DNA of 64,000 nucleotides from Micromonospora cathayae. GTDB lineage: Bacteria; Actinomycetota; Actinomycetes; Mycobacteriales; Micromonosporaceae. The notes beneath the pieces were generated by a model. It was not told the origin of the DNA and searched no databases. It saw nothing but the letters and a program-made list of their open reading frames with translations. The translations under genes and the position numbers were made by a program. The DNA lies in contig NZ_CP118615.1 of assembly GCF_028993575.1 (NCBI RefSeq), positions 6,973,001 through 7,037,000 on the forward strand. The letters run 5' to 3'. Below, piece after piece: positions 1 through 14,454 of the stretch (the first letter of the stretch is position 1; the number at the start of each line of letters is the position of its first letter).

Positions 1-67
1 CCACCAGCAGCAGCGCGGAGCCGACCGAGGTGAGCCGCCGGCCGGATGCGCCGTCGTGTGTGGACAC
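1..67 (-). CDS. Partial gene, N-terminus of a probable membrane protein
   Basis: Only the first 22 codons are inside the window. A GTG start at 67 is preceded on the minus strand by a purine-rich GGAAGGGA about 10 bases upstream. The translation begins with a polar stretch ending in GRRLTSVGS and then runs into ALLLV, as at the start of a first membrane segment. It is transcribed in the same direction as the Ebo operon but lies beyond that operon's terminator, so it is probably a separate unit. Product unknown. Confidence 0.45.
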   Translation of the reverse strand, partial: MSTHDGASGRRLTSVGSALLLV

Positions 68-332: not shown

Positions 333-1403
333 TCAGGACTGGCGGTGGATGGTCTGGGTGGCGAGGTCGGCCAGCACCTGTCGGGCCTCCGGCGTGACCG
401 GGGCGCGGTCCAGGGCGGCCAGGGCGGCGTCCGCGCGTACCGCGATCATCTGCTCGATCTGGTCCCGCGCGCCGGTGGACAGGATGATCTCGCGCAGCTC
501 GGCCGCGCCGCCACCGTCCAGGTCCGGGTTGCCGAACAGCTCCCGCAGCCGGGCGGTCTGCGCCCGGTCGGCGGCGTCCCGGGCCAACGCCATCATCACC
601 GTCGGCTTGCCCTCCCGCAGATCGTCCAGGACCGACTTGCCGGTCACCGCCGGATCACCGAAGACCCCGAGCACGTCGTCCCGGAGCTGGAACGCGTCCC
701 CGAGCGGATCACCGAACTCGGCCAGCGCGGCGAGCAGGTCCGCGTCCGCCCCGGCCAGCGCCGCGCCGATCTGCAACGGACGGGTCACCGTGTACCGGGC
801 CGCCTTCATCCGGATCACCGTCAGCGCGCTCGCCACCGAGCCGTCACCGACCCCGGACACCAGGTCGAGGTACTCCCCCGCGATCACCTCGGTACGCATC
901 CGGGCGAAGACGCCGTACCCCCGGTGCACCTCCTCGACGCTCAGCCCGCACTCGTGGAACATCTGGTCCGACCAGGCCGCGCAGAGGTCACCGCAGAGCA
1001 GCGCGGTGTTCCGCCCGTACGACGCCGGATCGCCCCGCCAGGACGACCGGCTGTGCAGGTCGGCGAAGAGCCGGTGCACCGACGGCTCGCCCCGGCGCTG
1101 GTCGCTGCCGTCCAGGATGTCGTCGTGGATCAGCGCGAACGCGTGGAACAACTCCAGCGCCGCCGCGGCGGCCACGATCGGGGTACCGTCCGGCCCGCCC
1201 GCTCCCCGCCACCCCCAGTAGCAGAACAGTGGACGCAGCCGCTTCCCGCCGGCCAGCACGAACCGGTGCAGCGTGGTGAAGACGCCCCGGGGCGCGCCGT
1301 CCGGCCAGTCCGGGTCCTGCCGTTCCAGGAAGGCGGTCAGCTCGGCGTCGAAGCGGGCCCGCAACCGGCCGGCGTCGGTCGGCGACTCGGCGGTGACCGT
1401 CAT
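333..1403 (-). CDS. Polyprenyl (geranylgeranyl-type) diphosphate synthase
   Basis: This 356-residue protein is a trans-prenyltransferase that condenses isopentenyl diphosphate onto an allylic diphosphate in the cytoplasm. The first Asp-rich motif is DDILD at residues 94-98, followed by RRG. The second is RDDVLG near 241-246, with GKSVLDDLREGKPT following as usual. Length is normal for actinobacterial GGPP synthases. Its ATG shares one base with the eboF stop (TGATG), so it is the last gene of the operon. Placement with the UbiA-type EboC suggests that it makes the prenyl donor for that enzyme (inference). Chain length cannot be told from the sequence with certainty. Confidence 0.92.
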   Translation of the reverse strand: MTVTAESPTDAGRLRARFDAELTAFLERQDPDWPDGAPRGVFTTLHRFVLAGGKRLRPLFCYWGWRGAGGPDGTPIVAAAAALELFHAFALIHDDILDGSDQRRGEPSVHRLFADLHSRSSWRGDPASYGRNTALLCGDLCAAWSDQMFHECGLSVEEVHRGYGVFARMRTEVIAGEYLDLVSGVGDGSVASALTVIRMKAARYTVTRPLQIGAALAGADADLLAALAEFGDPLGDAFQLRDDVLGVFGDPAVTGKSVLDDLREGKPTVMMALARDAADRAQTARLRELFGNPDLDGGGAAELREIILSTGARDQIEQMIAVRADAALAALDRAPVTPEARQVLADLATQTIHRQS

Positions 1404-2893
1404 CAGCCGGCCTCTTCCGGCGAACCCGCCGGCGACACCTCCGCCGCCTCCCCCGACGCGACCGGACCGGACGACACCGGATCCGTCGCGGCCGGGCCGG
1501 ACGGGGCCGTCGGCGACAGGCCGGCCAGCTCCAGCAGCAGGCCCTTGACCCCGGTCGCCTCGACCCGCTCCCGGACGGCCGCCGGATCGGAGCAGAGCAG
1601 CACCGGGGCGTCCGCGTCGTCGGTGGGCAGCCGGCCGTGCGAGCCGCGTACCGCCCGCGCACCGGCGTCCAGGCCCACCACGCTCATCAGGTACCGCATG
1701 CCGAGCTTCTTGCGGGCCAGCGCCACCCCGGCCCGGCGTTTCGCCGCCGCCGGCGCGGCCGGGTCGAACAACAGCTCCGCCGGGTCGTACCCGGGTTTAC
1801 GGTGGATCTCCACCAGCCGGGCGAAGTCCGGGGCCCGCCGGTCGTCCAGCCAGTAGTAGTAGGTGAACCACGCCGCCGGCTCGGCCACCAGCACCAGCTC
1901 ACCGGCCCGCTCGTGGTCCAACCCGTGCGCCGCCTTGCCCTCGGCGTCCAACACCTCCGCCACCCCGGGCAGGCCGGCACAGAGCTTCGCCACCAGCGGC
2001 ACGTCGGCCGGGTCCCGCACGTACACGTGGGCGACCTGGTGGTCCGCCACGGCGAACGCCCGGGACGTCCACGGGTCCAGGTACTCCATGCCGTCCTGGG
2101 TGTGCACCCGGAGCAGCCCCTCGGCCCGCAGCAGCCGGTTGACGTGCACCGGCTGCGAGACCTCGGTGATGCCGTACTCGGAGAGCACCACCACCGTCGC
2201 GTCCCGGCGGCGGGCGGCGTCCAGCAGCGGACCGAGCACCCCGTCCAGCTCGGTCGCGGCGGCGGCCGCCTGCGGCGCGGACGGGCCGAACCGTTGCAGG
2301 TCGTAGTCCAGGTGCGGGACGTACACCAGGGTCAGGTCCGGGTCGTGGTCGGCCATCACCTGCTCGGCGGCCCGGCAGATCCACGTCGACGAGGCGATCC
2401 CCGCCCCCGGCCCCCAGTAGGTGAACAGCGGGAAGGTGCCCAGCTTCGCGGTCAGCCGGTCGTGCAGCTCCGGCGGGTCGGTGTAGCAGTCCGGCTCCTT
2501 GCGACCGTCGGCGTAGTAGACCGGCCGGGGGGTCACCGTCCAGTCCACGTCCGCGCCCATCGCGTACCACCAGCAGATGTTGGCGACCGTGTAGCCGGGC
2601 CGGGCCCGGCGGGCGGCGTCCCACAGCTTGTCCCCGCCGACCAGGGCGTTGTGCTGCCGCCACAGCAGCACCTCGCCCAGGTCCCGGAAGTACCAGCCGT
2701 TGCCGACGATGCCGTGCCCGGCCGGCAGCTCGCCGGTGAGGAAGGTCGACTGCGCGGAACAGGTCACCGCCGGCAGCACCGTGCCCAACGGCGCGGTGAA
2801 CCCGCCGTCGGCCACCGACCGCAGGTTCGGCATGTGGGCCAGCAACCGGGGGGTCAGGCCCACCACGTTCAACACGACCAGTTTGCGGGTCAC
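1403..2893 (-). CDS. eboF: EboF-like alkaline phosphatase / nucleotide pyrophosphatase-phosphodiesterase family protein
   Basis: A 496-residue protein of the type I phosphodiesterase (NPP, alkaline phosphatase superfamily) fold. The nucleophile region PAVTCSAQST (Thr44) and the HGIVGNGWYFRD segment are clear. Two metal-binding signatures are altered: the usual Asp-Gly near residue 10 reads NVVG, and the usual S-D-H-G-M reads SEYGI at 238-242. Such changes may be normal for the Ebo branch, but they leave the chemistry open. The GTG start at 2893 lies 58 bases after eboE. It probably hydrolyses or binds a phospho-intermediate of the Ebo product. Confidence 0.85.
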   Translation of the reverse strand: MTRKLVVLNVVGLTPRLLAHMPNLRSVADGGFTAPLGTVLPAVTCSAQSTFLTGELPAGHGIVGNGWYFRDLGEVLLWRQHNALVGGDKLWDAARRARPGYTVANICWWYAMGADVDWTVTPRPVYYADGRKEPDCYTDPPELHDRLTAKLGTFPLFTYWGPGAGIASSTWICRAAEQVMADHDPDLTLVYVPHLDYDLQRFGPSAPQAAAAATELDGVLGPLLDAARRRDATVVVLSEYGITEVSQPVHVNRLLRAEGLLRVHTQDGMEYLDPWTSRAFAVADHQVAHVYVRDPADVPLVAKLCAGLPGVAEVLDAEGKAAHGLDHERAGELVLVAEPAAWFTYYYWLDDRRAPDFARLVEIHRKPGYDPAELLFDPAAPAAAKRRAGVALARKKLGMRYLMSVVGLDAGARAVRGSHGRLPTDDADAPVLLCSDPAAVRERVEATGVKGLLLELAGLSPTAPSGPAATDPVSSGPVASGEAAEVSPAGSPEEAG

Positions 2894-2951
2894 GAGTTCC
2901 TGCCTTTCGTTCGCGACTGCGGGGCTCGCAGAACCGGCTCACTCCTCGCGC

Positions 2952-4142
2952 TCACCGGGAGGTCACTCCCACCGGCGCGGTCAGGCCCAGCGCCGTCAGC
3001 TCGTCCCGGGTGAAGGCCAGTTCGGCGGCGATCCCGGTGGCCAGCTCCGCGTCGGTGCGCGGCCGCCGCGCCTCCGGCAGCACCCCCCAGGTGTACGTCT
3101 CGACGTCGAGGTGGTCGCAGCCGGCCACCGGACCGCCGAGCAGCCCGGCCAGCGCGGCACGCAGCACCGGCACGGTGGACGCCAGCGGCGGCTCCGGCGG
3201 GGCGTGCAGCGGCACGTGGTAGTGCACCCGCCAGGCGTCCGGCAGGCCGGCGTCCAGCGCGGCGTCCAGGTCGTCGGCGGCGTACGCCGGGTCGGCCGGG
3301 TCGTAGCCGTGCGCGCAGCGCGCCGACCGGGTCTGGTGCAGGAACCTCGGCTCCACCCAGCGGCGCAGCTCCTCGGCGTCAGCGACCGGGTCGGCCGCCT
3401 CGATCGCCGCGGACACCTGCACCTTCACCACCGGCAGGCCGGCGTCGCGCAGCCGGGTCAGCGCGGTGACCGGGTCCTCCCAGGCGCAGGCCAGATGGGC
3501 CAGGTCCAGGCAGATCCCGATCCGTTCCGGGTCCACCCCGGCCAGCGCGGTGGCCGCCTGACCGGTGCTCTCCACCACGCAGCCCGGCTCCGGTTCGAAA
3601 CCCACCCGCACCGGCCGGCCGGTGTCCCGCTCGATACCGGCCAGCCCGACGGCCAGCTCGTCCAGCCGGCGGCGGGCCGCGTCGGCCCGGTCGGCGTCCC
3701 ACGGGGTCCGCCAGGCCAGCGGCAGGGTGGACACCGAGCCCCGGGCCGCGTCGTCGGGCAGCAGGTCGGCCAGGACCCGGGCCAGGTCCAGGGTGTACGC
3801 CAGCCGCTCGGAGGTGGTCCAGTCCGGGTGGTACACGTCGCCCTTGACCACCGGGGCCTGGAACGCCGCGTACGGGAAGCCGTTGAGGGTGACCACCTCC
3901 AGCCCGCGTACGGTCAGCTCCCGGCGGAGCCGGCCCCGGGCCGCCGGGTCGGCGGCCAGCTCGGCGGCGGCCGGCGCGGCCAGCCACAGCCCGAGCCCGA
4001 GCCGGTCGGTGCCGAGGCGTTCCCGCACCGGCACCGCGTACGTGTCGAGCTGGGCGAGCACCCCGGTCAGCTCCTCGGCCGGGTGGACGTTGGTGCAGTA
4101 GCTGACGTGGACGGTGCTGCCGTCGGCGTGCCGCAGCCGCAT
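2952..4142 (-). CDS. eboE: EboE-like metabolite traffic protein (TIM-barrel xylose isomerase-like fold)
   Basis: A 396-residue protein related to the sugar-phosphate isomerase/epimerase TIM barrels. It shows GFEPEPGC, the hallmark glutamate strand of that fold, then GICLDLAHLACAWEDP and, near the C-terminus, DVETYTWG. The size and the early YCTNVHPAEE motif match EboE rather than a plain isomerase. ATG at 4142 overlaps the eboB stop by one base. In other bacteria eboE belongs to the cluster needed to move scytonemin-type or antialgal metabolites, but its biochemical activity is not established. Confidence 0.87.
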   Translation of the reverse strand: MRLRHADGSTVHVSYCTNVHPAEELTGVLAQLDTYAVPVRERLGTDRLGLGLWLAAPAAAELAADPAARGRLRRELTVRGLEVVTLNGFPYAAFQAPVVKGDVYHPDWTTSERLAYTLDLARVLADLLPDDAARGSVSTLPLAWRTPWDADRADAARRRLDELAVGLAGIERDTGRPVRVGFEPEPGCVVESTGQAATALAGVDPERIGICLDLAHLACAWEDPVTALTRLRDAGLPVVKVQVSAAIEAADPVADAEELRRWVEPRFLHQTRSARCAHGYDPADPAYAADDLDAALDAGLPDAWRVHYHVPLHAPPEPPLASTVPVLRAALAGLLGGPVAGCDHLDVETYTWGVLPEARRPRTDAELATGIAAELAFTRDELTALGLTAPVGVTSR

Positions 4143-4993
4143 CACGAGCCCCCGCGCAGGATCGAGTTGCCCTCGAAGGTGGGCTCCGGGGCGTCCAGGT
4201 CGGTCAGGTCCAGCCGGCCGGACTGCCCGTAGAACTCCACCGGGTTGCGCCACAGCACCCGGTCCACGTCGTCGTCGCTGAACCCGGCCAGCAGCATCGC
4301 CTCGCCGGTGGCCCGGGTGAGCAGCGGGTCCGAGCGTCCCCAGTCGGCGGCCGAGTTCACCAGCATCCGTTCGGTGCCGTACCGGCGCAGCAGTTCCACC
4401 ATGCGCGGCGGCGACATCTTGGTGTCCGGGTAGATCGAGAAGCCGGCCCAGCAGCCGCTGTCCCGGACGATCTCGACGGTCACCTCGTTGAGGTGGTCGA
4501 TCACCACCCGGCCCGGGTCGATGCCGGACTCGGCGACCACCGACAGGCTGCGCTCGGTGCCCCGGGCCTTGTCCCGGTGCGGGGTGTGCACCAGCGCCGG
4601 CAGGTCGTGCGCCACCGCCATGGCGAGCTGGGCGGCGAACACGTCGTCCTCCTCCGGGGTCATCGAGTCGTACCCGATCTCCCCGACCGCGACCACGCCG
4701 TCCTTCTCCAGGTAGCGCGGCAGCAGGTCGAGCACCGGACGGCAGCGCGGGTCGTTGGCCTCCTTCGGGTTCAGCGCGATGGTGGCGTGGTGCCGGACGC
4801 CGAACTGCCCGGCCCGGAACGGCTCCCAGCCGACCAGCGAGTCGAAGTAGTCGGTGAACGACCCCGGGTTGGTGCGGGGCTGACCGAGCCAGAACGCCGG
4901 TTCGACGACCGCCCGGACCCCGGCGGCGGCCATCCGCTCGTAGTCGTCGGTGGTGCGGGACGTCATGTGGATGTGCGGGTCGAAGATTCGCAT
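4142..4993 (-). CDS. eboB: EboB-like TatD-family metal-dependent hydrolase
   Basis: 283 residues of an amidohydrolase-superfamily barrel. The N-terminal metal motif is DPHIHM. Further ligand strands are GEIGYDS, VHTPHRDK, VIDHLNE and the terminal Asp in NSAADWGRSDP. All expected metal ligands of a TatD-like hydrolase are present, so it is probably catalytically active, unlike eboF whose sites are altered. It lies 27 bases after eboA and overlaps eboE by one base. Its substrate in Ebo pathways is unknown. Confidence 0.88.
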   Translation of the reverse strand: MRIFDPHIHMTSRTTDDYERMAAAGVRAVVEPAFWLGQPRTNPGSFTDYFDSLVGWEPFRAGQFGVRHHATIALNPKEANDPRCRPVLDLLPRYLEKDGVVAVGEIGYDSMTPEEDDVFAAQLAMAVAHDLPALVHTPHRDKARGTERSLSVVAESGIDPGRVVIDHLNEVTVEIVRDSGCWAGFSIYPDTKMSPPRMVELLRRYGTERMLVNSAADWGRSDPLLTRATGEAMLLAGFSDDDVDRVLWRNPVEFYGQSGRLDLTDLDAPEPTFEGNSILRGGS

Positions 4994-5020
4994 CGGGCCT
5001 CCCTGGGGCGGTGCGGGGCG

Positions 5021-5620
5021 TCACGCCTCCCGGGCGCTGAGCCGGTCGAGCAGTTCGGTGGCGTCGGCGGGCATCGTCCGGCCGGCGGCCCGGCGTTCGT
5101 CGGCCAGCCCGGCGAGCATCACGGCGAGTTCGGCGTCCGCGCGGTCGTCGAGGTCGGCGACCACGTCCAGCGGTACGCCCATGAACACGCACTTGAGCAC
5201 CGCCTGCCGCCAGGCCGGCGGGTCCAGGTGCCGGGCGTACGGGCCGAGCGCGGCGGCCACCAGCCGGGTGTCGTTGGTGCGGATCGCGTCGTGCAGCAGC
5301 GGGACGGCCGCCGCGCCGACCGGCAGCAGCGGCAGGGCGCGCAGCACGGCCCGCTTCTCCGCCGCGTCACCCTGCTGGTAGCGGGCGGTGACCTGGTCGG
5401 CGTGGTCGGCGCGGAGCGCGGTCAGCAGCAGCACCCGGGCCGCCTCGTCGACCGTCCACCCGGGGGTTCCGTCCAGCGGCCCCCGCCCGCAGCGCCGACC
5501 GGCGGCGGCGAAGTACCGGCCGAGCGTGCCGGGGTCCGCCGCCACGTCCCGCAGCGCGCCCGCCAGCCACTCCGGATCGGGTACGCCCCGCAGCGCCGTG
5601 CGCAGTTGATCCGGTGTCAT
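5021..5620 (-). CDS. eboA: EboA domain-containing protein
   Basis: A 199-residue, mostly helical protein matching EboA. It shows the middle segment LPLLPVGAAAVPLLHDAIRTN and the motif AVLKCVFMGVPLDVV near the C-terminal third. The ATG at 5620 is chosen because GGGGAGAC lies directly upstream. No catalytic motif is visible. It resembles a repeat-type scaffold. It is the defining gene of the Ebo cluster, and its neighbours on both sides (isomerase, eboB) keep the usual cluster company. Confidence 0.85.
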   Translation of the reverse strand: MTPDQLRTALRGVPDPEWLAGALRDVAADPGTLGRYFAAAGRRCGRGPLDGTPGWTVDEAARVLLLTALRADHADQVTARYQQGDAAEKRAVLRALPLLPVGAAAVPLLHDAIRTNDTRLVAAALGPYARHLDPPAWRQAVLKCVFMGVPLDVVADLDDRADAELAVMLAGLADERRAAGRTMPADATELLDRLSAREA

Positions 5621-5682
5621 CCCGTCTCCCCTTTTCGTACTGGTGGGCTCGGCTCCGGCCGAGGTGGTCGCCGGGGCCGCTG

Positions 5683-6567
5683 CTACCGGGATTCCCTCCC
5701 TGCCGTGGCGGCGGCGCGGAGGAACTCCAGCGACCGGGTGGCGACGCCCGGCGCGTCGTGCGAGTGCCGGGGCAGCTCCACCGCGACCAGACCCCGGTAG
5801 CCGGCGTCGGCCAGCGCGCGCAGCACCGGCGGGAAGTCGATCTCGCCGGTGCCGAACTCCAGGTGCTCGTGCACCCCCCGGCGCATGTCGTCGATCTGCA
5901 CGTTGACCAGGTGCTCCGCCACGGCGGTGACGCAGTCCGGCACCGGCAGCGGTTCCAGGCAGCGGCAGTGCCCGATGTCGAGGGTGATGCCGAAGGCCGG
6001 TGGCGCGCCGAGCGCGTCGCGCAGCCGCCGCCAGTCGGCGATCGACTCGACCAGCATGCCCGGCTCCGGTTCGAAGCCCAGCGGCACGCCGGCCCGGTCG
6101 GCGACCGCGACCACCTCGGCGCAGCCGGCGACCAGCCGGTCCCAGGCCAGGTCGGGGGCGACGGTGGCGGGGCGGACGCCGGCCCAGAACGAGACCGCCT
6201 CCGCGCCCAGGTCCGCGCCGATCTGCACGGCCCGGGTGAGGAAGTCGATCCGGCGGGCGTGGTCGTCGTGCAGCAGGGTCGGCGCGTGCTTCTGCCACGG
6301 GTCCAGCAGGTAGCGGGCCCCGGTCTCGACCACCACGGCCAGGCCGAGGCTCTCCAGCCGGCGGCGGACCGCGGCGGTCCGGTGGGCCAGTCCCGCCTCG
6401 AACGGGTCGAGGTGGCCGTGGTCCAGGGTGAGGGCGACCCCCTGGTAGCCGAGGTCGGCGAGGACGGCCAGCGCGTCGTCGAGGCGGTGGTTGGCGAAGC
6501 CGTTGGTGCCGTACCCGAACCGCAGCCGTCCGGTGCCGACCTCCGTCACCCCGGATGCGCCGGTCAT
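5683..6567 (-). CDS. Sugar phosphate isomerase/epimerase family TIM-barrel protein
   Basis: 294 residues with an AP-endonuclease-2-like (xylose-isomerase-like) barrel. It opens RFGYGTNGFANHRLDDAL. Metal-ligand strands are LGFEPEPGML, GITLDIGHC and NVQIDDMR, and GLVAVELPRHSHD lies near the C-terminus. Its ATG overlaps the eboC stop (ATGA), indicating translational coupling. It may isomerise or epimerise the cyclitol or sugar moiety handled by the pathway (inference). Confidence 0.88.
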   Translation of the reverse strand: MTGASGVTEVGTGRLRFGYGTNGFANHRLDDALAVLADLGYQGVALTLDHGHLDPFEAGLAHRTAAVRRRLESLGLAVVVETGARYLLDPWQKHAPTLLHDDHARRIDFLTRAVQIGADLGAEAVSFWAGVRPATVAPDLAWDRLVAGCAEVVAVADRAGVPLGFEPEPGMLVESIADWRRLRDALGAPPAFGITLDIGHCRCLEPLPVPDCVTAVAEHLVNVQIDDMRRGVHEHLEFGTGEIDFPPVLRALADAGYRGLVAVELPRHSHDAPGVATRSLEFLRAAATAGRESR

Positions 6568-7544
6568 GTCGGCGAGACCTTCCGGGCCAGCCGGCGGGCC
6601 AGTGGCGCGGCGGCGGCCACCGCCACCCCGAGCAGCCCGGCCCCGGCGCGGGCGGTCAGCGCGCCCTGGAGGGCGGGCAGACCGGTGATGCCGGCGCCGA
6701 CGGCGGCCCGGACCTGGCCGGCGGACGGATCGGCGTACACCCGGGCCTGGGCGGCCCCGTACCGGGCGGCGTACCAGGCGGTCAGGGCGGCCGGCAGGGC
6801 CGCGCGGAGCGTGTCGGGGGTGCCGCGCAGCGCCGTGCGGAGCGTGTCCGGGGTGCCGCGCCGGCCCGCCGCGTCCAGCGGACCCCGGTCGGCGGCCCGT
6901 CCGGCGGTCGGCCCGGCGGCCCGTCCGGCGGTCGGCCTCTTCGTGCCGAGCACGGCGCTGGCCGCGACCACGGCGGTGCCGGCCAGGGTACGCACCGGCA
7001 GCCGCTGGTCCGCGCCGTCGACCTCACGCCGGGACAGCGCGGTGACCGTCCAGGTGTGCGCGGCGACGGTCAACGCCGCCGGCACGGCCCGGCCGACCCG
7101 GCCACCGGACGCGCCGAGCAGCACGTCCAGCCCCCGGCAGACGGCCATCACGGCGGGGCCGGCGGCGGTGTTCTTGGCGGCCAGGTCGTACCCCCACACG
7201 GCGGCGGCCAGCGGGACCGCGACGGCGGCGGCGCGCCGGCCCCCGGCGGCGGTGGCGAGCGCCACCCCGGCGGCGGTCAACCCGACGGCGAGGCCGAGCG
7301 CGGTACCCGGGGTCACCCGGCCGCTCGGGATCGGCCGGTCCGGCCGTTCCACCGCGTCCAGGTCCCGGTCGGCCCAGTCGTTGGCGGCCATGCCGGCCCA
7401 GTAGAGCAGCACCGACGCGCCGGCCAGGGCGGGCGTACCGGCACCGAGCGTCCCGGCGGCCGCCGCCCCGGCGAGCACGTCACCGGGGACGGAGAGGGCG
7501 GCCGGAGCCCGGACCAGCTCGGCGAGGTCAGCGGGCGTCGGCAT
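6564..7544 (-). CDS. eboC: EboC-like UbiA-family prenyltransferase
   Basis: 326 residues, an integral membrane prenyltransferase. The first Asp-rich motif is NDWADRDLDAVERPDRP, close to the UbiA NDxxDxxxD pattern. The second loop holds GYDLAAKNTAAGP. Multiple Ala/Leu/Val-rich helices follow. A low-complexity insert around residues 160-240 is built on PTAGRAAGP and TPDTLRTALRG repeats, visible at 6805-6930. It overlaps the ips gene end by 17 bases. Expected role: transfer of the prenyl chain made by the operon's polyprenyl synthase onto a small acceptor at the membrane. Confidence 0.87.
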   Translation of the reverse strand: MPTPADLAELVRAPAALSVPGDVLAGAAAAGTLGAGTPALAGASVLLYWAGMAANDWADRDLDAVERPDRPIPSGRVTPGTALGLAVGLTAAGVALATAAGGRRAAAVAVPLAAAVWGYDLAAKNTAAGPAVMAVCRGLDVLLGASGGRVGRAVPAALTVAAHTWTVTALSRREVDGADQRLPVRTLAGTAVVAASAVLGTKRPTAGRAAGPTAGRAADRGPLDAAGRRGTPDTLRTALRGTPDTLRAALPAALTAWYAARYGAAQARVYADPSAGQVRAAVGAGITGLPALQGALTARAGAGLLGVAVAAAAPLARRLARKVSPT

Positions 7545-8688
7545 CGGGACCTCCGGCGTGCAGTCGCGCGGCGTACGCGGTCAACCGCTGCCACTGCTCG
7601 GTGAGCGACCCGGTGGCCGCGTCGAGCGGGTCCTTGAAGAAGAAGGCCAGCTCGGCCAGGGGTCCGGTGTGGCCGGCGGCGTGCCCGGCGGCGGTGAGCC
7701 GGGCCAGGTCCAGCACCAGCGGGGCGGCCAGCGCCGAGTCACAGCCGTGCCAGGTGAACTCCATCCGCATGCCGGTGCCGAGGAACCCGCTGAAGGTGAT
7801 CAGATCCCAGGCGGTCTTGAAGTCGCCCAGGTCCTCGACGTACTCGATGCGGGTGGTGCCCTGCGGCTGGTAGCCGAGCGTCTCGGCGAGGACGCGCTGT
7901 TTGCTGGCGGTCTTCGCGGCGTTGGCGGCCGGTTCGGCGAGGGTGGCGCCGTCCCCGCCGCCGAGCAGGTTGGTGCCCGACCAGGACCGCACGGCCAGGT
8001 TGCGCATCGCGAACATCGGGGCGAGCACCGACTTGACCAGGGTTTCCCCGGTCTTGCCGTCGTGCCCGGCGTACGGCAGGCCGCGTTCGGCGGCGAGCGC
8101 GGCCAGGGCGGGCAGCCGGGCTCCGGTCGACGGGGTGAAGTCGACGTACGGGCAGCCGGCGGTGAACGCCGCGTACGCGTACCGCGAGCTGGCCGGCAGC
8201 ACGTCGTCGGGGCCGTCGAGGGCGGCCCGCAGGGCGACGGGGTCGGCGTGGGCGGGGTGCGGCACGGCGGCCGGTTCGGTGGCGGAGACGTTGACCACCA
8301 CCACCCGGGCCAGCCGGTGCCGGTCCCGGAACGCCTCCAGGTCCCGCACCACCGCGGCGATCTGGGCGGCCTGGGTGCCGTCGACCGGGGCCGGGCGGAT
8401 CTCCTCGTCGACGGCGGCGAGTTCGGGGCGGACGGCGTCGACCAGCCGGCCGGGGACCACGCCGGCGACGGCCAGCGCCTCGGCCTTCTTGGTCAGCGGG
8501 GTCTCGGCGACGTCGTGCCCGCCGAAGACCAGGTCGGCGAAGGAGGGCAGGGCGGGACCGCGGACGCCGGGCAGTTCCGTGACGCAGCCGGTCGGCCCGG
8601 TCAGCCCGGCACGCAGGGCGAGCGCCCCGACGATGCTGGTGGTCGCGACTGAGCCACGTGCCCCCACCAGCCAGACACCGGTACGCAT
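7528..8688 (-). CDS. myo-Inositol-1(3)-phosphate synthase
   Basis: 386 residues. It converts glucose 6-phosphate to myo-inositol 3-phosphate with bound NAD. The nucleotide-binding start GVWLVGARGSVATT, the GHDGKTGET segment near 204 and SGTNLLGGGDG near 235-245 are standard for the prokaryotic enzyme, as is the length. The ATG at 8688 is fixed by GGAGGGAG nine bases upstream, since the reading frame stays open far upstream. It is the first gene of the Ebo operon and overlaps eboC. Like EboD (dehydroquinate-synthase-like) it is an NAD-dependent sugar-phosphate cyclase, so it could supply the ring for the operon's product (inference). Confidence 0.93.
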   Translation of the reverse strand: MRTGVWLVGARGSVATTSIVGALALRAGLTGPTGCVTELPGVRGPALPSFADLVFGGHDVAETPLTKKAEALAVAGVVPGRLVDAVRPELAAVDEEIRPAPVDGTQAAQIAAVVRDLEAFRDRHRLARVVVVNVSATEPAAVPHPAHADPVALRAALDGPDDVLPASSRYAYAAFTAGCPYVDFTPSTGARLPALAALAAERGLPYAGHDGKTGETLVKSVLAPMFAMRNLAVRSWSGTNLLGGGDGATLAEPAANAAKTASKQRVLAETLGYQPQGTTRIEYVEDLGDFKTAWDLITFSGFLGTGMRMEFTWHGCDSALAAPLVLDLARLTAAGHAAGHTGPLAELAFFFKDPLDAATGSLTEQWQRLTAYAARLHAGGPDADAR

Positions 8689-8725
8689 GGTGCTCCCTCC
8701 GGGCGCAGTGACTTTCATGGATATC

Positions 8726-8779
8726 AGATGTCCGGCGGAGCGACACCTGCTGGGTCGGATGCCCGGCGGAGCGACATCT
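8726..8779. promoter_or_regulatory. Twin 23-bp operator candidates upstream of ips
   Basis: Copy 1 (8726-8748) is AGATGTC-N9-GACACCT and copy 2 (8757-8779) is GGATGCC-N9-GACATCT, with the same N9 spacer CGGCGGAGC. Each is a near-perfect inverted repeat of AGATGTC. The copies lie exactly 31 bp apart, about three helical turns, 38 to 91 bp upstream of the ips start. This is the layout of a cooperative repressor or activator site. The regulator is not identifiable. Confidence 0.55.
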
Positions 8780-9332: not shown

Positions 9333-10550
9333 TCAGGCTGGTGCCGTCACCAGGGCCGGTTCCACCTCGGTCCAGGACGAACCGAGGTCCGCCGACCGGG
9401 TCACCGCGTCCAGCACCAGCTGGACCTGCAACGCGTCGGCGAACGAGGGAGCCGGGTCGGTGCCGGTGGCGACCGCCTCGACGAAGTCGCGCATCTGGTG
9501 GGTGAACGAGTGCTCGTAGCCGATGATGTGCCCCGGCGGCCACCAGGCCGACATGTACGGGTGGTCGCCCTCGGTGACCAGGATCCGGCTGAAGCCCTGC
9601 TCCGCGCCCGGTCGGGTGGCGTCGTAGAACTCCAGCTCGTTGAGGCGTTCCAGGTCGAACACCACGCTGCCGAGCGAGCCGTTGATCTCGACCCGCAGGG
9701 CGTTCTTCCGGCCGGTGGCGAACCGGCTCGCCTCGTACGTGGCCAGGGCGCCACCGTCGAGCCGGGCGACGAAGACCGCCGCGTCGTCGACGGTGACCGT
9801 TCCGGTGGCCGGGGCGGCACCGTCCGCGCCGTTCGCGCTCGCGGCGAGCCCGCTGGACTCGGCCGGCAGCGGCCGTTCCTTGACGAACGTCTCGGTCACC
9901 GCGCTCACGCCGGTGATCCGCTGCCCGGTCACGAACTGGGTCAGGTCGATGATGTGCGCGCCGATGTCGCCGAGCGCACCGGAGCCCGCCCTGTCCTTCT
10001 GCAACCGCCAGACCAGGGGGAACTGCGGATCCACGATCCAGTCCTGTAGGTAGACCGCCCGGACGTGCCGGACGACGCCCAGCCGTCCGCTGGCGATGAG
10101 GTCCCGCATCATGGTGACCGCGGGCACCCGACGGTAGTTGAACCCGCACATCGACCGGACCCCGGCGGCCTGGGCCTTCGCCGCCGCGGCGGTCATCGCC
10201 CGAGCCTCCTCGACCGTGTTCGCCAGCGGCTTCTCGCACAACACGTGCTTGCCGGCGGCCAGCGCGGCGAGCGCGATCTCGGCGTGGCTGTCGCCCGGTG
10301 TGCAGACGTCGACCACGTCGATGTCGTCCCGGGTGACCAGGTCACGCCAGTCGGTGGTGTACGCGTCCCAGCCGAGCCGGTCGGCGGCGTCGGCCACCTT
10401 TCCGGTGTCCCGGCCGCAGATCAGCGCCATCCGGGCCCGCGCCGGCAGGTCGTACACCCGGTTCACGGTGCGCCACGCCTGCGAGTGCGCGGCGCCCATG
10501 AACGCGTAGCCGACCAGACCGACACGCAGTTCTCTGTCTACAGTGGACAA
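9333..10550 (-). CDS. Gfo/Idh/MocA family NAD(P)-dependent oxidoreductase
   Basis: 405 residues. The N-terminal Rossmann fold has VGLVGYAFMGAAHSQAW. The family signature EKPLANT follows, then GFNYRRVPA and the C-terminal domain with GDIGAHIIDLTQ. A TTG start at 10550 is chosen because GGGGGGAG sits about eight bases upstream and no better start exists in frame. Members oxidise sugars or cyclitols such as inositol. Placement 20 bases behind a sugar-binding protein suggests it acts on the imported substrate. The substrate cannot be read from sequence. Confidence 0.9.
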   Translation of the reverse strand: MSTVDRELRVGLVGYAFMGAAHSQAWRTVNRVYDLPARARMALICGRDTGKVADAADRLGWDAYTTDWRDLVTRDDIDVVDVCTPGDSHAEIALAALAAGKHVLCEKPLANTVEEARAMTAAAAKAQAAGVRSMCGFNYRRVPAVTMMRDLIASGRLGVVRHVRAVYLQDWIVDPQFPLVWRLQKDRAGSGALGDIGAHIIDLTQFVTGQRITGVSAVTETFVKERPLPAESSGLAASANGADGAAPATGTVTVDDAAVFVARLDGGALATYEASRFATGRKNALRVEINGSLGSVVFDLERLNELEFYDATRPGAEQGFSRILVTEGDHPYMSAWWPPGHIIGYEHSFTHQMRDFVEAVATGTDPAPSFADALQVQLVLDAVTRSADLGSSWTEVEPALVTAPA

Positions 10551-10570
10551 GGTGGGTCTCCCCCCGTGTG

Positions 10571-11623
10571 TCAGAACCCGAGCTTGAGGTAGTCGCCCGC
10601 GTTCTCCTTGGTGATCGTCTCCGAGGCGAGCACGATCTCCTTCGGTACCTGGAGTTCCACCAGGTCGGACATGCCCTTGCCCTGACCGATCAGCCGGGCC
10701 AGCGAGATGGCCGAGGAGGCCATCGACGGGCTGTACGTGACGGTCGCCTTGAGCACGGTGTTGTCGGCCTGGATGTCCTCCATCGCCTTCTTCGAGCCGG
10801 CGCCGCCGACCATGAAGAACTCCTTGCGGCCGGACTGGTTGACCGCGGCGAGGACACCGATGCCCTGGTCGTCGTCGTGGTTCCAGATCGCGTCGATCTT
10901 CGGCAGGGCCTGGAGGAGACCGGTGGCCGCCTGCTGGCCGGAGTCGGCGGTGAACTCCGCCGGCCGCCGGTTGGCGACCTTGAAGCCGGACGCGGCCAGG
11001 GTGTCGGCGAAGCCCTTCGACCGCTCCTGGGTCAGCTCCAGCGAGTCGATGCCGGGGATCTCGCCGATGATCGGGTTGCTGACGCCCTTGGCCTGGAGCT
11101 GCGCGATGATGTAGGTCGCCGCGGCGACGCCCATGCCGTAGTTGTCGCCCTTGATCTGGGTCCGGTACGCGCGGGCGTCCGGGAAGGCCCGGTCCAGGTT
11201 GACCACCGGGATGCCGGCCTTCATCGCCTCCAGGCCGAACGCGTTGAGCTCCTTGCCGTCGTGCGGCAGCAGCACGATCACGTCGGGCTTCTGGGAGAGC
11301 AGGGTGGACAGCGCCGCCCGCTGGGCCGCCGCGTCCGCGCCGGCCTCGACGGTCTTGAACTCCACGTCGGAGTACGCGCCGGCCTGGGCCTTGGCGTTGT
11401 TGGTGATGGCGGCGATCCAGCCGTGGTCGGCGGCGGGCGCCGAGAAACCGATCGTGACGCGCTTGCCGGGCTCGGCGTTGCCGCCGGTCTCGGCGGCCTT
11501 GGTCTGCGCGGCGGTCGGCTCGGCCTCGTTGCTGGTGCAGCCGGCGAGCAGCGCGCCGGCACCGAGCGCGGCCGTGCCGAACAGCAGCCGGCGGCGCGAC
11601 ATGTCGCGGCTCTGCTGGGTCAT
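10571..11623 (-). CDS. Sugar ABC transporter substrate-binding lipoprotein (RbsB-like)
   Basis: 350 residues. A twin-arginine-type lipoprotein signal, SRRRLLFGTAALGAGALLAGC, ends in a lipobox Cys (residue 29). The mature part is a type 1 periplasmic binding fold: VTIGFSAPAADHGW, LSQKPDVIVLLPHD, IPVVNLDRAFPD and WNHDDDQGIGV. This matches the ribose/xylose/inositol class. It lies downstream of its permease after a 189-base G-rich spacer and upstream of the Gfo/Idh oxidoreductase. Confidence 0.92.
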   Translation of the reverse strand: MTQQSRDMSRRRLLFGTAALGAGALLAGCTSNEAEPTAAQTKAAETGGNAEPGKRVTIGFSAPAADHGWIAAITNNAKAQAGAYSDVEFKTVEAGADAAAQRAALSTLLSQKPDVIVLLPHDGKELNAFGLEAMKAGIPVVNLDRAFPDARAYRTQIKGDNYGMGVAAATYIIAQLQAKGVSNPIIGEIPGIDSLELTQERSKGFADTLAASGFKVANRRPAEFTADSGQQAATGLLQALPKIDAIWNHDDDQGIGVLAAVNQSGRKEFFMVGGAGSKKAMEDIQADNTVLKATVTYSPSMASSAISLARLIGQGKGMSDLVELQVPKEIVLASETITKENAGDYLKLGF

Positions 11624-11737
11624 GATGACCTCCTGTGTGCGGGGTGGTGGAGGAGTTCCGGAGTAAGGGTGTGTGCGTCCCGGCCACCGTCGATCGCGGG
11701 TGGCCGCCGGTTTGCTGTGCTGTCTGTCGTGGGTGGT

Positions 11738-11812
11738 GCGGGTGGAGCGGGGTGGTGGTGCGGGTGGTGCGGGGGTGGTGGAGCGGGGTGGTGCGGGGGG
11801 TCGTCGGGTGGG
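11738..11812. repeat. G-run repeat tract between permease and binding-protein genes
   Basis: The plus strand carries at least nine runs of three to six G separated by TGGTGC, TGGAGC or TGGTGGTGC. This meets the pattern for a G-quadruplex several times over. The genes are read from the other strand, so the G-rich strand is the template and the transcript is C-rich. It fills most of the gap before the binding-protein gene. Confidence 0.6.
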
Positions 11813-12934
11813 TCAGGCGGTGGTCGCCTTGTTCCGCTTGAGGAACCCGGTGACGCTGCGGAACTGGACCTGCTGGACCAGGACCGCGGCGACGATGATG
11901 CCGCCCTTGACCATGTTCTGGGCCTCGGTGGTGAGACCGTTGATGGCGAACAGGTTGGTGATGGTGGAGAAGATGATCACGCCGAGCAGGGAGCCGACGA
12001 TGGTGCCCCGGCCGCCACTGAGCAGCGTCCCGCCGATGATCGCGGCGGCGATCGCGTCGAGTTCGTAGAGGTTGGCCATGGCCGCCTGGGCCGAGGTGGC
12101 CTGCGAGGTCAGCATGATCGCGGCGATGCCGCAGCAGACCCCGGAGAGGGCGTAGAGCATGACGGTGTGCCGCTTGACGTTGATGCCGGCGAGCCGGGCC
12201 GCCTCCGGGTTCCCGCCGACCGCGACGGTACGCCGGCCGAAGGTGGTGCGGTTGAGCAGCACCCACCCGGCGATCACCACGGCGGCGAGGATGTAGACCA
12301 GCAGCGGGATGCCGAGCACGTTGGTGCTGGCGATGCCGTTGATCGTGCTGTTGTTCGAGACCTGGGTCTGCTTCTGCGAGATCTCCGCCGCCAGGCCCCG
12401 GGCCGCGACCAGCATGGCCAGCGTGGCGATGAACGGTACGAGTTTGCCGTACGAGATGAGCAGGCCGTTGACCAGGCCGACGCCGAGCCCGACGACGAGC
12501 GCGGTGAAGATCATGCCACCGGCGCCGAAGCTCTGGGTGGCGAGCGTGGTGGCCCAGACCCCGGACAGCGCGACGATCGCGCCGACCGACAGGTCGATGC
12601 CGCCACCGATGATCACGAAGGTCATGCCCACGGTGACCACGCCGACCACCGAGGCCAGCTTCAGGATGGTGAGGAAGTTGTTCCACACCCAGTTGGAGTC
12701 ACCGTAGAGGTCGGGCCGGGTGGCGATCCCGATGATCACCAGCACCACCAGCACGGCGATCAGGCCGAGGTTGCGTCGGGCGCCCTCGCCGCTGTCGCCC
12801 TTCCAGAAGGAGAGGCCGCTCCGGGGCGTCTCCCGGTGGGCCGCCGCCTCGGTGCCCGCCTTGCTGACCGGCGGCGACTGGGCCGGCAGGTCGGTGGGTC
12901 GCTCGGGGGTGGTTGTACCTGTCGCGTCGCTCAT
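11813..12934 (-). CDS. Sugar ABC transporter permease (RbsC-like)
   Basis: 373 residues. After a polar N-terminal tail of about 45 residues there are eight to ten hydrophobic segments typical of BPD_transp_2 permeases. Signature stretches are GMTFVIIGGGIDLSVGAIVAL, GLVNGLLISYGKLVPFIATL and GGTLLSGGRGTIVGSLLG. It overlaps the ATPase gene by four bases (ATGA). It forms the membrane channel of the sugar importer with the ATPase and binding protein on either side. Confidence 0.93.
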   Translation of the reverse strand: MSDATGTTTPERPTDLPAQSPPVSKAGTEAAAHRETPRSGLSFWKGDSGEGARRNLGLIAVLVVLVIIGIATRPDLYGDSNWVWNNFLTILKLASVVGVVTVGMTFVIIGGGIDLSVGAIVALSGVWATTLATQSFGAGGMIFTALVVGLGVGLVNGLLISYGKLVPFIATLAMLVAARGLAAEISQKQTQVSNNSTINGIASTNVLGIPLLVYILAAVVIAGWVLLNRTTFGRRTVAVGGNPEAARLAGINVKRHTVMLYALSGVCCGIAAIMLTSQATSAQAAMANLYELDAIAAAIIGGTLLSGGRGTIVGSLLGVIIFSTITNLFAINGLTTEAQNMVKGGIIVAAVLVQQVQFRSVTGFLKRNKATTA

Positions 12935-14454
12935 GCCGGCGCGCCTTCCATGAGGGACCCCGCCATCACGAGGTCGAGCACGGTGTTCTCGTCAAGTTCG
13001 CCGGCCGGCGCCTCGCGCACGACCCGCCCTTCGCGCATCACCAGCACCCGGTCGGCCAGACCGAGCACCTCGGGCACCTCGCTGGAGACCAGCAGCACCC
13101 CGACGCCCCGGGCGGCCAGCTCCCGGATCACCTGGTACAGCTCGGCCCGCGCGCCCACGTCCACACCCCGGGTCGGCTCGTCCAGCAGGAGCAGCTTCGT
13201 GTCGCCGAGCAGCCAGCGCCCGACCACCACCTTCTGCTGGTTGCCGCCGGAGAGGGTCCGCACCGGGCGGAGCACGTCCCGGGGACGCAGCTCGAGCACG
13301 TCGGCGATCCGGTTGGCCTCGGCCCGTTCCTTGCCGGTGTCGGTGAAGCCCAGCCGGGCGAACCGGCTGAACGTGGCGAGGGTGACGTTGCGGTAGATCG
13401 GCTCGCCGAGCAGGAGCGCCTGGCTCTTGCGCTCCTCCGGGGCCATTCCCATGCCGGCGCGGACCGCCGCGCCGACACTGCCCGGCCGCAGGCTGCGACC
13501 GGACACGGTCACCGTGCCCGCGTCGGCCCGGCGGGCCCCGAAGATCGTCTCCATCAGCTCGGACCGGCCGGAGCCGACCAGCCCGGCGATGCCGACGATC
13601 TCCCCGGCCCGGACCCGCAGCGACACGTCGGCGAACTCGCCGGCGCGGGTCAGCCCGTCCACCCGGAGCAGTTCGTCGCCCGCGGCGTCGTCGGCCGGGC
13701 GCTCCGGGAAGACGTACTCGATGCTGCGGCCGGTCATCCGGCTCACCAGGTCCCTGGTGGGGGTGTCCCGGGCGGAGAGGTCGGCCGCGGTGGTGCGGCC
13801 GTCCTTGAGCACGGTGACCCGGTCACCGATCTCGCGGATCTCCTCCATCCGGTGCGAGATGTAGATGACCGCGATGCCCTGCGCGGTCAGCTCCCGGATG
13901 ATCCGGAACAGGTTGCCCACCTCGTCGTGGGCGAGCACCGCGCTCGGCTCGTCCATGATGATCAGCCGGGCCTCGTGGGAGAGGGCCCGCGCCATACTGA
14001 CGATCTGCTTGCCCGCCGCCGGCAGCGACCGGACCATCCGGCCCGGCGGGATCTCGGCGTGGCCGAGCCGGCCGAGGATCTCCCGGGTCCGGCGGGCCAT
14101 GTGGCCCCGGCGGACGAAGCCGAACCGCCGCGGCTCGTGGCCCAGGAACGCGTTCTCCGCCACCGACAGGTCCTCGACCAGGTCGAGTTCCTGGTAGATG
14201 GTGGCGATCCCGGCCTTCATCGCCGCCTGCGGGTTGGCGAAGGTGGTGGGTTCGCCCCGCCACTCCACCAGCCCGGAGTCCGGCTTGTGCACACCGGCCA
14301 GCACCTTGATCAGGGTGGACTTGCCGGCTCCGTTCTGGCCGAGCAGGCAGTGCACCTCGCCGGCCCGTACCTCGAGCTGCACCCCGTCCAACGCACGCAC
14401 GCCGGGGAACGTCTTGACCACGTCGGTCAGTCTCAGCACCGTCTCTGCACTCAT
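12931..14454 (-). CDS. Sugar ABC transporter ATP-binding protein with two ATPase domains (RbsA/XylG-like)
   Basis: 507 residues. The first domain has Walker A GQNGAGKSTL and Walker B LIIMDEPSAVL. The second has the degenerate P-loop GLVGSGRSEL usual for this family, plus LSGGNQQKVVVGRWL and LLLLDEPTRGVDVG. The ATG at 14454 overlaps the ROK regulator stop by four bases. Fused double ATPases of this type serve pentose, inositol and galactose importers. Confidence 0.94.
   Translation of the reverse strand: MSAETVLRLTDVVKTFPGVRALDGVQLEVRAGEVHCLLGQNGAGKSTLIKVLAGVHKPDSGLVEWRGEPTTFANPQAAMKAGIATIYQELDLVEDLSVAENAFLGHEPRRFGFVRRGHMARRTREILGRLGHAEIPPGRMVRSLPAAGKQIVSMARALSHEARLIIMDEPSAVLAHDEVGNLFRIIRELTAQGIAVIYISHRMEEIREIGDRVTVLKDGRTTAADLSARDTPTRDLVSRMTGRSIEYVFPERPADDAAGDELLRVDGLTRAGEFADVSLRVRAGEIVGIAGLVGSGRSELMETIFGARRADAGTVTVSGRSLRPGSVGAAVRAGMGMAPEERKSQALLLGEPIYRNVTLATFSRFARLGFTDTGKERAEANRIADVLELRPRDVLRPVRTLSGGNQQKVVVGRWLLGDTKLLLLDEPTRGVDVGARAELYQVIRELAARGVGVLLVSSEVPEVLGLADRVLVMREGRVVREAPAGELDENTVLDLVMAGSLMEGAPA

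What the first reader, a model, noticed from the sequence alone, without database searches (positions are those of the whole stretch)
333..8688. Ebo-type operon in which inositol-phosphate synthase takes the place of the EboD cyclase and a dedicated prenyl synthase is added
Eight coupled genes contain eboA, eboB, eboC, eboE, eboF and a TIM-barrel isomerase. The expected eboD (3-dehydroquinate-synthase-like) is not in the operon. Instead the first gene is myo-inositol-phosphate synthase, another NAD-dependent cyclase of a sugar phosphate, and the last is a trans-polyprenyl diphosphate synthase. The parts fit a path from glucose 6-phosphate to inositol phosphate, isomerisation, prenylation by EboC and phosphate removal or handling by EboB/EboF, giving a prenylated cyclitol. 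Ebo clusters elsewhere are linked to scytonemin precursor export and antialgal activity. I recall a similar gene set at one edge of the calcium-dependent antibiotic region of Streptomyces coelicolor (near SCO3242-SCO3243), but I cannot check that here.
Basis: partly seen in the sequence, partly recalled or inferred. Interest (0 to 1): 0.82.

Follow-up and report, generated by a model that had tools for sequence, protein, structure and literature searches.

The report
Inositol-synthase version of the Ebo operon
A bacterial gene set thought to build an unknown fat-linked cyclic sugar alcohol here carries an inositol-making enzyme and a partner enzyme in place of its usual ring-forming enzyme, and it tends to sit beside sugar-oxidising enzymes that look secreted, which gives concrete ways to find out what this widespread pathway makes.

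Summary
In detail: window 8688-333 (minus strand) has eight close-set genes: MIPS, UbiA prenyltransferase, an extra TIM-barrel enzyme, EboA, EboB-like, EboE, EboF-like, polyprenyl synthase. No EboD-type gene lies nearby. The MIPS keeps its catalytic residues and is not the housekeeping Ino1, which lies elsewhere. It is general: all 15 of 346 Actinomycetota genomes with EboE over cut-off carry this MIPS in the cluster, and 0 of 36 cluster-bearing genomes has EboD over cut-off; of 80 other EboE loci (78 outside the phylum) 65 have EboD and none MIPS. The TIM gene goes with MIPS: found in 22 of 346 genomes, exactly those with the ebo MIPS (15) or its sister clade (7). Two Gemmatimonadota loci suggest an in-lineage swap of EboD for MIPS+TIM. 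Corrections: the UbiA is SCO3242-family; the prenyl synthase is local; 'EboF removes the inositol phosphate' is unsupported. New lead: GSDH and ThuA genes flank the cluster (GSDH 27 of 36 genomes, ThuA 24 of 36), and GSDH recurs at EboD-type clusters. The product is unknown; a prenylated cyclitol stays inference. Ten searches of one open-licence library found no description of the MIPS type.

The parts
7528..8688 (-). Ebo-type myo-inositol-phosphate synthase (MIPS), 386 aa, first gene
   Evidence: PF07994/PF01658 over cut-off; N240, K259, K263, K291, K352 align with N255, K274, K278, K306, K367 of A. fulgidus MIPS 1u1i and are invariant in 12 cluster MIPS rows; ebo MIPS group 100/100 in the tree
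6564..7544 (-). UbiA-superfamily prenyltransferase, SCO3242 family
   Evidence: NF045897 372.6 over 260; NF035940 EboC 122.6 under 250; N55-D56-x2-D59-x3-D63, R137 and E174 invariant in 13 rows incl. four EboC proteins
5683..6567 (-). TIM-barrel (xylose-isomerase-like) partner of MIPS
   Evidence: PF01261; its model hits exactly the 22 of 346 genomes with ebo MIPS or sister MIPS
5021..5620 (-). EboA-domain protein, 199 aa
   Evidence: NF035938 161.5 over 50
4142..4993 (-). EboB-like TatD-type protein
   Evidence: PF01026; 42-60% to EboB of four EboD-type clusters
2952..4145 (-). EboE
1403..2893 (-). EboF-like phosphodiesterase/nucleotide pyrophosphatase
   Evidence: PF01663 222.8; 49-56% to EboF of four EboD-type clusters
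333..1403 (-). trans-polyprenyl diphosphate synthase (chain length not determined)
   Evidence: PF00348; best NCBIfam model NF042416 311.6, under its cut-off of 600
1..67 (-). probable 5' end (GTG at 67-65, by eye) of a GSDH/PKD/CBM6/ricin-lectin protein that runs left out of the window to G000:C1:6970230; recurrent neighbour
   Evidence: linkage
9333..10568 (-). Gfo/Idh oxidoreductase, levoglucosan-dehydrogenase-like (accessory; ORF limits)
   Evidence: PF01408, NF052479 359.5 under 650; a relative is near MIPS in 17 of 21 order-level loci
10571..14457 (-). sugar ABC importer: binding protein 10571-11623, permease 11813-12934, ATPase about 12931-14457 (accessory)
   Evidence: synteny
14451..15764 (-). 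ROK-family protein (accessory)
   Evidence: synteny

Best explanation
It is the actinobacterial form of the Ebo pathway, in which a two-gene cyclitol module, MIPS plus a dedicated TIM-barrel enzyme, stands in for the EboD cyclase. [quoted passage not shown] the TIM enzyme reshapes that product or a keto form of it (the pairing is shown by genomics, the chemistry inferred from its ketose-epimerase-like superfamily); the SCO3242-type UbiA attaches a prenyl chain to a hydroxyl of the cyclitol, much as archaeal DGGGP synthase etherifies a polyol phosphate (inferred); EboA, EboB, EboE and EboF do what they do in EboD-type clusters (unknown). The result would be a prenylated cyclitol lipid with an outward-facing role, here perhaps connected with the GSDH/ThuA proteins encoded beside it (linkage shown, role inferred). 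The prenyl synthase adds prenyl donor in this family only.
For: EboE over cut-off in 15 of 346 phylum genomes, all 15 with MIPS in a cluster; 0 of 36 cluster-bearing genomes with NF004852 over cut-off; 65 of 80 other EboE loci with EboD, 0 with MIPS or TIM. Order MIPS-UbiA-TIM-[EboA]-EboB-EboE-EboF in 20 of 21 order-level and 12 of 14 further phylum-level loci. Separate MIPS group in the tree; housekeeping Ino1 elsewhere in 29 of 36 genomes over cut-off and 2 just under it. TIM in 22 of 346 genomes = 15 ebo-MIPS + 7 sister-MIPS. Gemmatirosa plasmid: MIPS, TIM, UbiA, EboF, EboB, EboG, EboE, no EboD on the 17 kb seen; its EboE falls on the EboD side of the tree; a Gemmatimonadetes MAG contig has EboD with a UbiA 62% identical to Gemmatirosa's over 219 aa. 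Nearest solved UbiA relative by profile is DGGGP synthase. GSDH within 5 kb in 27 of 36 genomes, expected 0.64; ThuA in 24 of the 32 that have one, expected 0.31.
Against: No product, substrate or mutant data for a MIPS-type cluster were found. The one assayed EboC-type enzyme preferred quinoline acids with FPP (PMC9235831, abstract and part 1 of section 4). The second Asp motif of UbiA is reduced to one conserved Glu. TIM-superfamily enzymes usually act on carbonyl sugars, and inositol phosphate has none. Exceptions: a second cluster copy lacks MIPS (L078), one cluster is broken and lacks MIPS and TIM (L090), one is fragmentary (L047). In 2 of 36 genomes (G381, G428) I saw no other MIPS, so there the cluster enzyme could also serve housekeeping. 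Three genomes (G052, G055, G090) have full-length but sub-cut-off NF004852 matches (199-208 bits) away from the cluster. The swap rests on one 4.6 kb MAG contig and one plasmid; the rest of the Gemmatirosa genome was not searched for EboD. GSDH/ThuA were chosen after seeing the neighbours, related genomes are not independent, and linkage is absent in 6 of 14 genera.
Confidence: 0.6

Rival explanations
1. MIPS and TIM feed sugar or inositol metabolism of the neighbouring importer, Gfo/Idh, GSDH and ThuA genes, and the Ebo genes are merely co-located; there is no prenylated cyclitol.
For: Gfo/Idh near MIPS in 17 of 21 order-level loci; GSDH/ThuA linkage; Gfo/Idh also near six of seven sister MIPS genes.
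Against: The seven core genes keep order where importer and Gfo/Idh are absent: three named Streptomyces plasmids and L052, L053, L077. Gemmatirosa keeps MIPS+TIM among Ebo genes outside the phylum.
Confidence: 0.12
2. UbiA prenylates an aromatic or other acceptor, and the cyclitol is a separate head group, as in a glycolipid carrier.
For: Ubi-297 (EboC type) farnesylates quinoline acids (PMC9235831, abstract). A lipid-carrier model is discussed in PMC6282210 (passages).
Against: No aromatic pathway gene is in the conserved seven-gene core; profile neighbour is DGGGP synthase; no glycosyltransferase in the core to join the halves.
Confidence: 0.2
3. MIPS-type and EboD-type clusters make different cyclitols, so MIPS+TIM is a branch to a new product rather than a substitute.
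For: UbiA of the actinobacterial clusters forms its own group (90/98) and has its own curated family; EboD is placed near enzymes that use sedoheptulose 7-phosphate (PMC5133447, section 14 part 1).
Against: Gemmatimonadota show 62%-identical prenyltransferases beside either module; EboB, EboE and EboF are retained.
Confidence: 0.3
4. The MIPS is simply the cell's inositol supply or a mycothiol gene.
Against: TIGR03450 scores 25.1 against a cut-off of 638 while a 663-bit Ino1 lies at C1:1311512-1312561 of this genome; S. coelicolor inoA is SCO3899, not SCO3243 (PMC7581861, passage).
Confidence: 0.02

Closest known systems
ebo (eustigmatophyte and bacterial operon), EboA-EboF
   Same: EboA domain, EboE, EboB- and EboF-like proteins and a UbiA prenyltransferase in one cluster; a hybrid isoprenoid-cyclitol product was already proposed (PMC5133447, passages)
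   Different: no EboD; MIPS and an extra TIM enzyme instead; prenyltransferase of another curated family; the main text of PMC5133447 has no occurrence of 'inositol' and one of 'actinobacteria'
SCO3242-SCO3243 at the edge of the S. coelicolor CDA cluster
   Same: SCO3242 names the prenyltransferase family NF045897 and SCO3243 is called a MIPS
   Different: only expression values seen in print (PMC3610822 passages); two more papers seen as listing only; locus not inspected
EDB cluster of Pseudomonas fluorescens NZI7 and scytonemin-linked ebo cluster of Nostoc punctiforme
   Same: ebo genes needed for a repellent phenotype and for the scytonemin monomer to reach the periplasm, where ScyE is thought to oxidise it (PMC6282210, passages)
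   Different: EboD type; no MIPS reported in the passages seen
Digeranylgeranylglyceryl phosphate synthase (6m31)
   Same: nearest solved relative of the prenyltransferase alignment, 56.3 bits over profile positions 2-149
   Different: acceptor is a glycerol phosphate lipid (recalled)
Five-membered-cyclitol-phosphate synthase (6k96)
   Same: a MIPS-superfamily enzyme used for a specialised cyclitol, by its title
   Different: 45.2 bits to the window MIPS against 238 for 1u1i

Membership tests
Ebo cluster | EboE | tested here: met
   NF035939 406.7, cut-off 250
Ebo cluster | EboA (or EboG) | tested here: met
   EboA domain NF035938 161.5, cut-off 50; the narrower EboA-family model NF035937 scores 81.1, below its cut-off of 320
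Ebo cluster | EboB and EboF homologues | tested here: met
   EboB 42-60% and EboF 49-56% to four EboD-type clusters; no EboB or EboF model was hit
Ebo cluster | EboC equivalog | tested here: not met
   NF035940 122.6, cut-off 250; belongs to NF045897. EboC of two EboD-type clusters also misses this cut-off, so the model is narrow
Ebo cluster | EboD sugar phosphate cyclase | tested here: not met
   none in the cluster; three PF01761 genes elsewhere in the genome, none over NF004852
Ebo cluster | role in moving a metabolite outwards | not testable with these tools
   needs mutants
Myo-inositol-phosphate synthase | both MIPS domains and the catalytic Asn/Lys set | tested here: met
   that these residues are catalytic is recalled
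Mycothiol-type housekeeping Ino1 | TIGR03450 over cut-off | tested here: not met
   25.1 against 638
SCO3242-family prenyltransferase | NF045897 over cut-off | tested here: met
   372.6 against 260
UbiA superfamily | two Asp-rich motifs | tested here: inconclusive
   PF01040 67.4 over 34.2; first motif NDxxDxxxD kept, second reduced to one conserved Glu in SCO3242- and EboC-type rows alike
Ketose-epimerase/xylose-isomerase-like TIM enzymes | fold of EboE | tested here: met
Ketose-epimerase/xylose-isomerase-like TIM enzymes | fold of the extra TIM protein | tested here: inconclusive
   PF01261 and PDB profile hits, but the single-sequence model has pLDDT 54.5

The most novel reading that the evidence does not exclude
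EboD and MIPS+TIM converge on the same or a near-identical C6 cyclitol, so the widely conserved Ebo product is a prenylated inositol-type lipid across phyla, and its general job is to serve extracytoplasmic beta-propeller oxidoreductases (GSDH in Actinomycetota and Proteobacteria, ScyE in cyanobacteria) as membrane carrier of their substrate or as electron acceptor. PqqC was found in 0 of 10 genomes of the window's family that have GSDH beside the cluster, which would fit a cofactor or acceptor role; against it, 6 of 9 EboD-type genomes with GSDH at the cluster do have PqqC.
Probability: 0.2. Interest if true: 0.85.

Novelty: new variant of a known kind. Interest (0 to 1): 0.62.

Why it matters
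The Ebo product is unknown, and its key cyclase EboD acts on an undetermined sugar phosphate. A natural replacement of EboD by MIPS, an enzyme of known chemistry, narrows the acceptor to something derivable from inositol phosphate and makes the question testable in tractable Streptomyces with labelled inositol. The linkage to GSDH and ThuA genes gives a candidate functional partner outside cyanobacteria.

Tried and rejected
Rejected: (1) eboD hidden elsewhere in the unit. (2) MIPS as the only inositol source of this genome. (3) Strict co-inheritance of UbiA with MIPS as proof of acceptor identity: my first reading of the Gemmatirosa trees, withdrawn when a Gemmatimonadetes MAG with EboD proved to carry a 62%-identical UbiA. 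(4) A general link to ScyD/ScyE in Actinomycetota: 1 of 38 loci scanned, the query's own L096. (5) Gfo/Idh as core member: absent from the three Streptomyces plasmid loci. (6) The single-sequence model of the TIM protein (pLDDT 54.5) was not used for a fold search. Led nowhere: EboC with inositol gave 3 unrelated papers (listing); SCO3242-3244 gave 3 papers, one read in passages, two seen as listing; CDA with inositol phosphate synthase gave 3, two read in passages. The claim that the MIPS type is undescribed rests on ten searches of one open-licence library. An ORF pulled out for the 3.85 Mb PF01761 gene was in the wrong frame and not used further. For GSDH in EboD-type loci I gave only 33 of the 46 full-length loci; the 13 left out (stand-alone EboE genes, more Nostoc-type and a few others) had no GSDH hit, so 9 of 33 is 9 of 46 overall. 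One of the 33 (L131) shows no EboD. The EboD sensitivity of NF004852 was checked on one EboD only.


Full report
WHAT IS THERE. The window is G000:C1:6973001-7037000 of a 7.2 Mb single-contig genome. On its minus strand, 8688 to 333, lie eight close-set genes: MIPS, UbiA prenyltransferase, a TIM-barrel protein, an EboA-domain protein, a TatD-type protein, EboE, a PF01663 protein and a polyprenyl synthase. EboE scores 406.7 bits (cut-off 250) and the EboA domain 161.5 (cut-off 50). The prenyltransferase is over the cut-off of the SCO3242 family (372.6 against 260), not of EboC (122.6 against 250); EboC of two EboD-type clusters also misses that cut-off. EboB- and EboF-like proteins are named from identity to EboD-type clusters of Azospirillum, Salipiger, Ketogulonicigenium and Deinococcus.

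THE MIPS IS A SEPARATE, PROBABLY ACTIVE ENZYME. Its best solved relative is archaeal MIPS 1u1i (238 bits). N240, K259, K263, K291 and K352 align with N255, K274, K278, K306 and K367 of that enzyme and are invariant in 12 cluster MIPS rows, Gemmatirosa included. That these are catalytic is recalled; the printed entries 3qvw and 3qvx differ from 1u1i at K278 and K367. It scores 25.1 bits on the housekeeping Ino1 model (cut-off 638), while another gene in the genome scores 663.7. Of 36 genomes examined, 29 have an Ino1 over cut-off and 2 just below (606 and 603 bits); of the other five, three have another, general-type MIPS and two (G381, G428) showed none besides the cluster gene. In S. coelicolor the inositol gene inoA is SCO3899 (PMC7581861, passage), so SCO3243 is a second MIPS there. 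In a tree of 56 MIPS proteins the 38 ebo ones lie on one side of a branch (100/100), apart from 7 sister and 11 general ones; Gemmatirosa is a long branch whose place is less sure.

EBOD IS MISSING THROUGHOUT THE ACTINOMYCETOTA CLUSTERS SEEN. At order level 22 of 121 genomes carry the prenyltransferase over cut-off, G000 among them. The other 21 loci were fetched (L033-L053): 20 of 21 keep MIPS-UbiA-TIM-EboB-EboE-EboF in order, with EboA detected between TIM and EboB in 18; L047 is fragmentary. At phylum level 15 of 346 genomes have EboE over cut-off and a 16th has broken EboE pieces. All 15 have the MIPS in a cluster. Of 14 further phylum-level loci viewed, 12 are complete; L078 is a second copy without MIPS and L090 (the 16th genome) is broken and lacks MIPS and TIM. 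None of 36 genomes has an EboD-like gene over the NF004852 cut-off; the best are 199-208 bits, full length but away from the cluster, in three genomes. The Ketogulonicigenium EboD scores 544.8 on that model (cut-off 333). Three named Streptomyces plasmids show the same seven genes. In the 80 named EboE loci nearest to the Gemmatirosa EboE, 65 carry EboD, none MIPS or TIM; of 64 with two or more other ebo genes 59 carry EboD. Two of the 80 are actinobacterial, both EboE-like genes with no other ebo gene in the stretch.

THE TIM GENE BELONGS TO THE MIPS. A model of the TIM protein hits 22 of 346 genomes at E 1e-40 or better. These are exactly the 15 EboE genomes and the 7 genomes with a sister MIPS of 328-346 bits. 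The sister genes lie outside ebo clusters, with TIM on the same strand up to about 6 kb away and in L190 directly adjacent. So MIPS and TIM form a module used in at least two settings. TIM and EboE alignments are related (hhalign probability 97.7) and share an EPEPG stretch.

A LIKELY SWAP IN ONE PHYLUM. On a Gemmatirosa plasmid the map order is TIM, MIPS, UbiA, EboF, EboB, EboG (minus strand) and EboE (plus strand); no EboD was found on the 17 kb, and the rest of that genome was not searched. Its EboE sits among EboD-type EboE proteins (100/100), its UbiA with the MIPS side (92/82). A Gemmatimonadetes MAG contig (L105, 4.6 kb) has EboD, EboE, EboF and a UbiA 62% identical to Gemmatirosa's over 219 aa. 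One prenyltransferase lineage thus occurs beside either module, which favours functional replacement and weakens the idea that UbiA must change with the cyclase.

PRENYLTRANSFERASE. N55-D56-x2-D59-x3-D63, R137 and E174 are shared by SCO3242- and EboC-type proteins; the second Asp motif is reduced. The nearest solved relative by profile is DGGGP synthase. The one assayed member of the wider group that I found, Ubi-297, preferred quinoline acids (PMC9235831, abstract and part 1 of section 4), which speaks against a cyclitol acceptor or reflects the acceptors tried. A polyprenyl synthase ends the operon in the window and in 7 of 21 order-level loci, all of family f1; two other loci (L052, L077) have a 35-37% relative directly upstream of MIPS.

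NEIGHBOURS. Upstream in the window lie a ROK protein, a sugar ABC importer and a Gfo/Idh oxidoreductase; a relative of the Gfo/Idh gene is near MIPS in 17 of 21 order-level loci. Just left of the window are genes for GSDH and ThuA/3-keto-disaccharide-hydrolase proteins with CBM6 and lectin domains; that they are secreted is inferred from domains. ThuA lies within 5 kb of the cluster in 24 of the 32 genomes that have one (36 searched), expected 0.31; of seven genomes with a single ThuA gene, six have it there. GSDH lies within 5 kb in 27 of 36, expected 0.64. By genus 8 of 14 show GSDH or ThuA, in several arrangements (downstream in f1 and one f15 genus; upstream of MIPS in others). Among cross-phylum loci a GSDH gene lies in 14 of 80 stretches; among 33 full-length ones submitted it is 9, expected 0.67, and the 13 full-length ones not submitted had none. 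In L111, L114 and L142 it lies between ebo genes. These families were picked after the fact, and related genomes are not independent. PqqC is over cut-off in 14 of 43 genomes: 0 of 10 of family f1, 8 of 34 Actinomycetota in all, and 6 of 9 EboD-type genomes with GSDH at the cluster. [quoted passage not shown] A shared theme may be an Ebo product that serves extracytoplasmic oxidoreductases.

VERDICT. A real and general variant of the Ebo system: MIPS plus TIM in place of EboD. The product, a prenylated inositol-type lipid, remains inference, and an isoprenoid-cyclitol was already proposed for EboD clusters (PMC5133447: passages, section 12, section 14 part 1). I found no description of the MIPS type in the searches listed.

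Noticed in passing
L184-L190 (unnamed phylum-level genomes): Sister MIPS and TIM in another uncharacterised cluster: in L184 Pfam finds a GT4 glycosyltransferase, TIM, YcaO, Gfo/Idh and a methyltransferase on the strand of MIPS; L188 and L190 each have a PIG-L deacetylase gene near. It looks like a glyco-inositol compound pathway.
   Followed up: partly
L054 1287-13158 (left of the window) and flanks of most actinobacterial loci: GSDH, ThuA, 3-keto-disaccharide hydrolase and another PF01261 protein beside the cluster.
   Followed up: partly
L111, L114, L121, L125, L134, L142 and others: GSDH gene within or next to EboD-type clusters; 14 of 80 stretches held.
   Followed up: partly
L127, L151, L153, L170: EboE-like genes without other ebo genes, forming their own clade (100/100); by eye near sugar transporter and dehydrogenase genes.
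   Followed up: no
L113, L131: Clusters with EboA, B, C, E, F but no EboD or MIPS in the stretch held; L113 has a Gfo/Idh gene 44% identical to the window's.
   Followed up: no
L096 3029-4228: ScyD/ScyE-family gene and a multicopper oxidase gene beside the cluster on a Streptomyces plasmid, echoing the scytonemin link.
   Followed up: partly
window 8720-8800: Imperfect direct repeat around GTCGCTCCGCCGGRCATC upstream of MIPS, possibly an operator; seen by eye.
   Followed up: no
G055, G069, G076, G090, G097 PqqC matches: PqqC matches in these five related genomes contain a TGA and a TAG.
   Followed up: no
L098: Ketogulonicigenium EboD-type cluster also holds two Gfo/Idh genes and a sugar isomerase/epimerase gene with a weak IolE match.
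   Followed up: no
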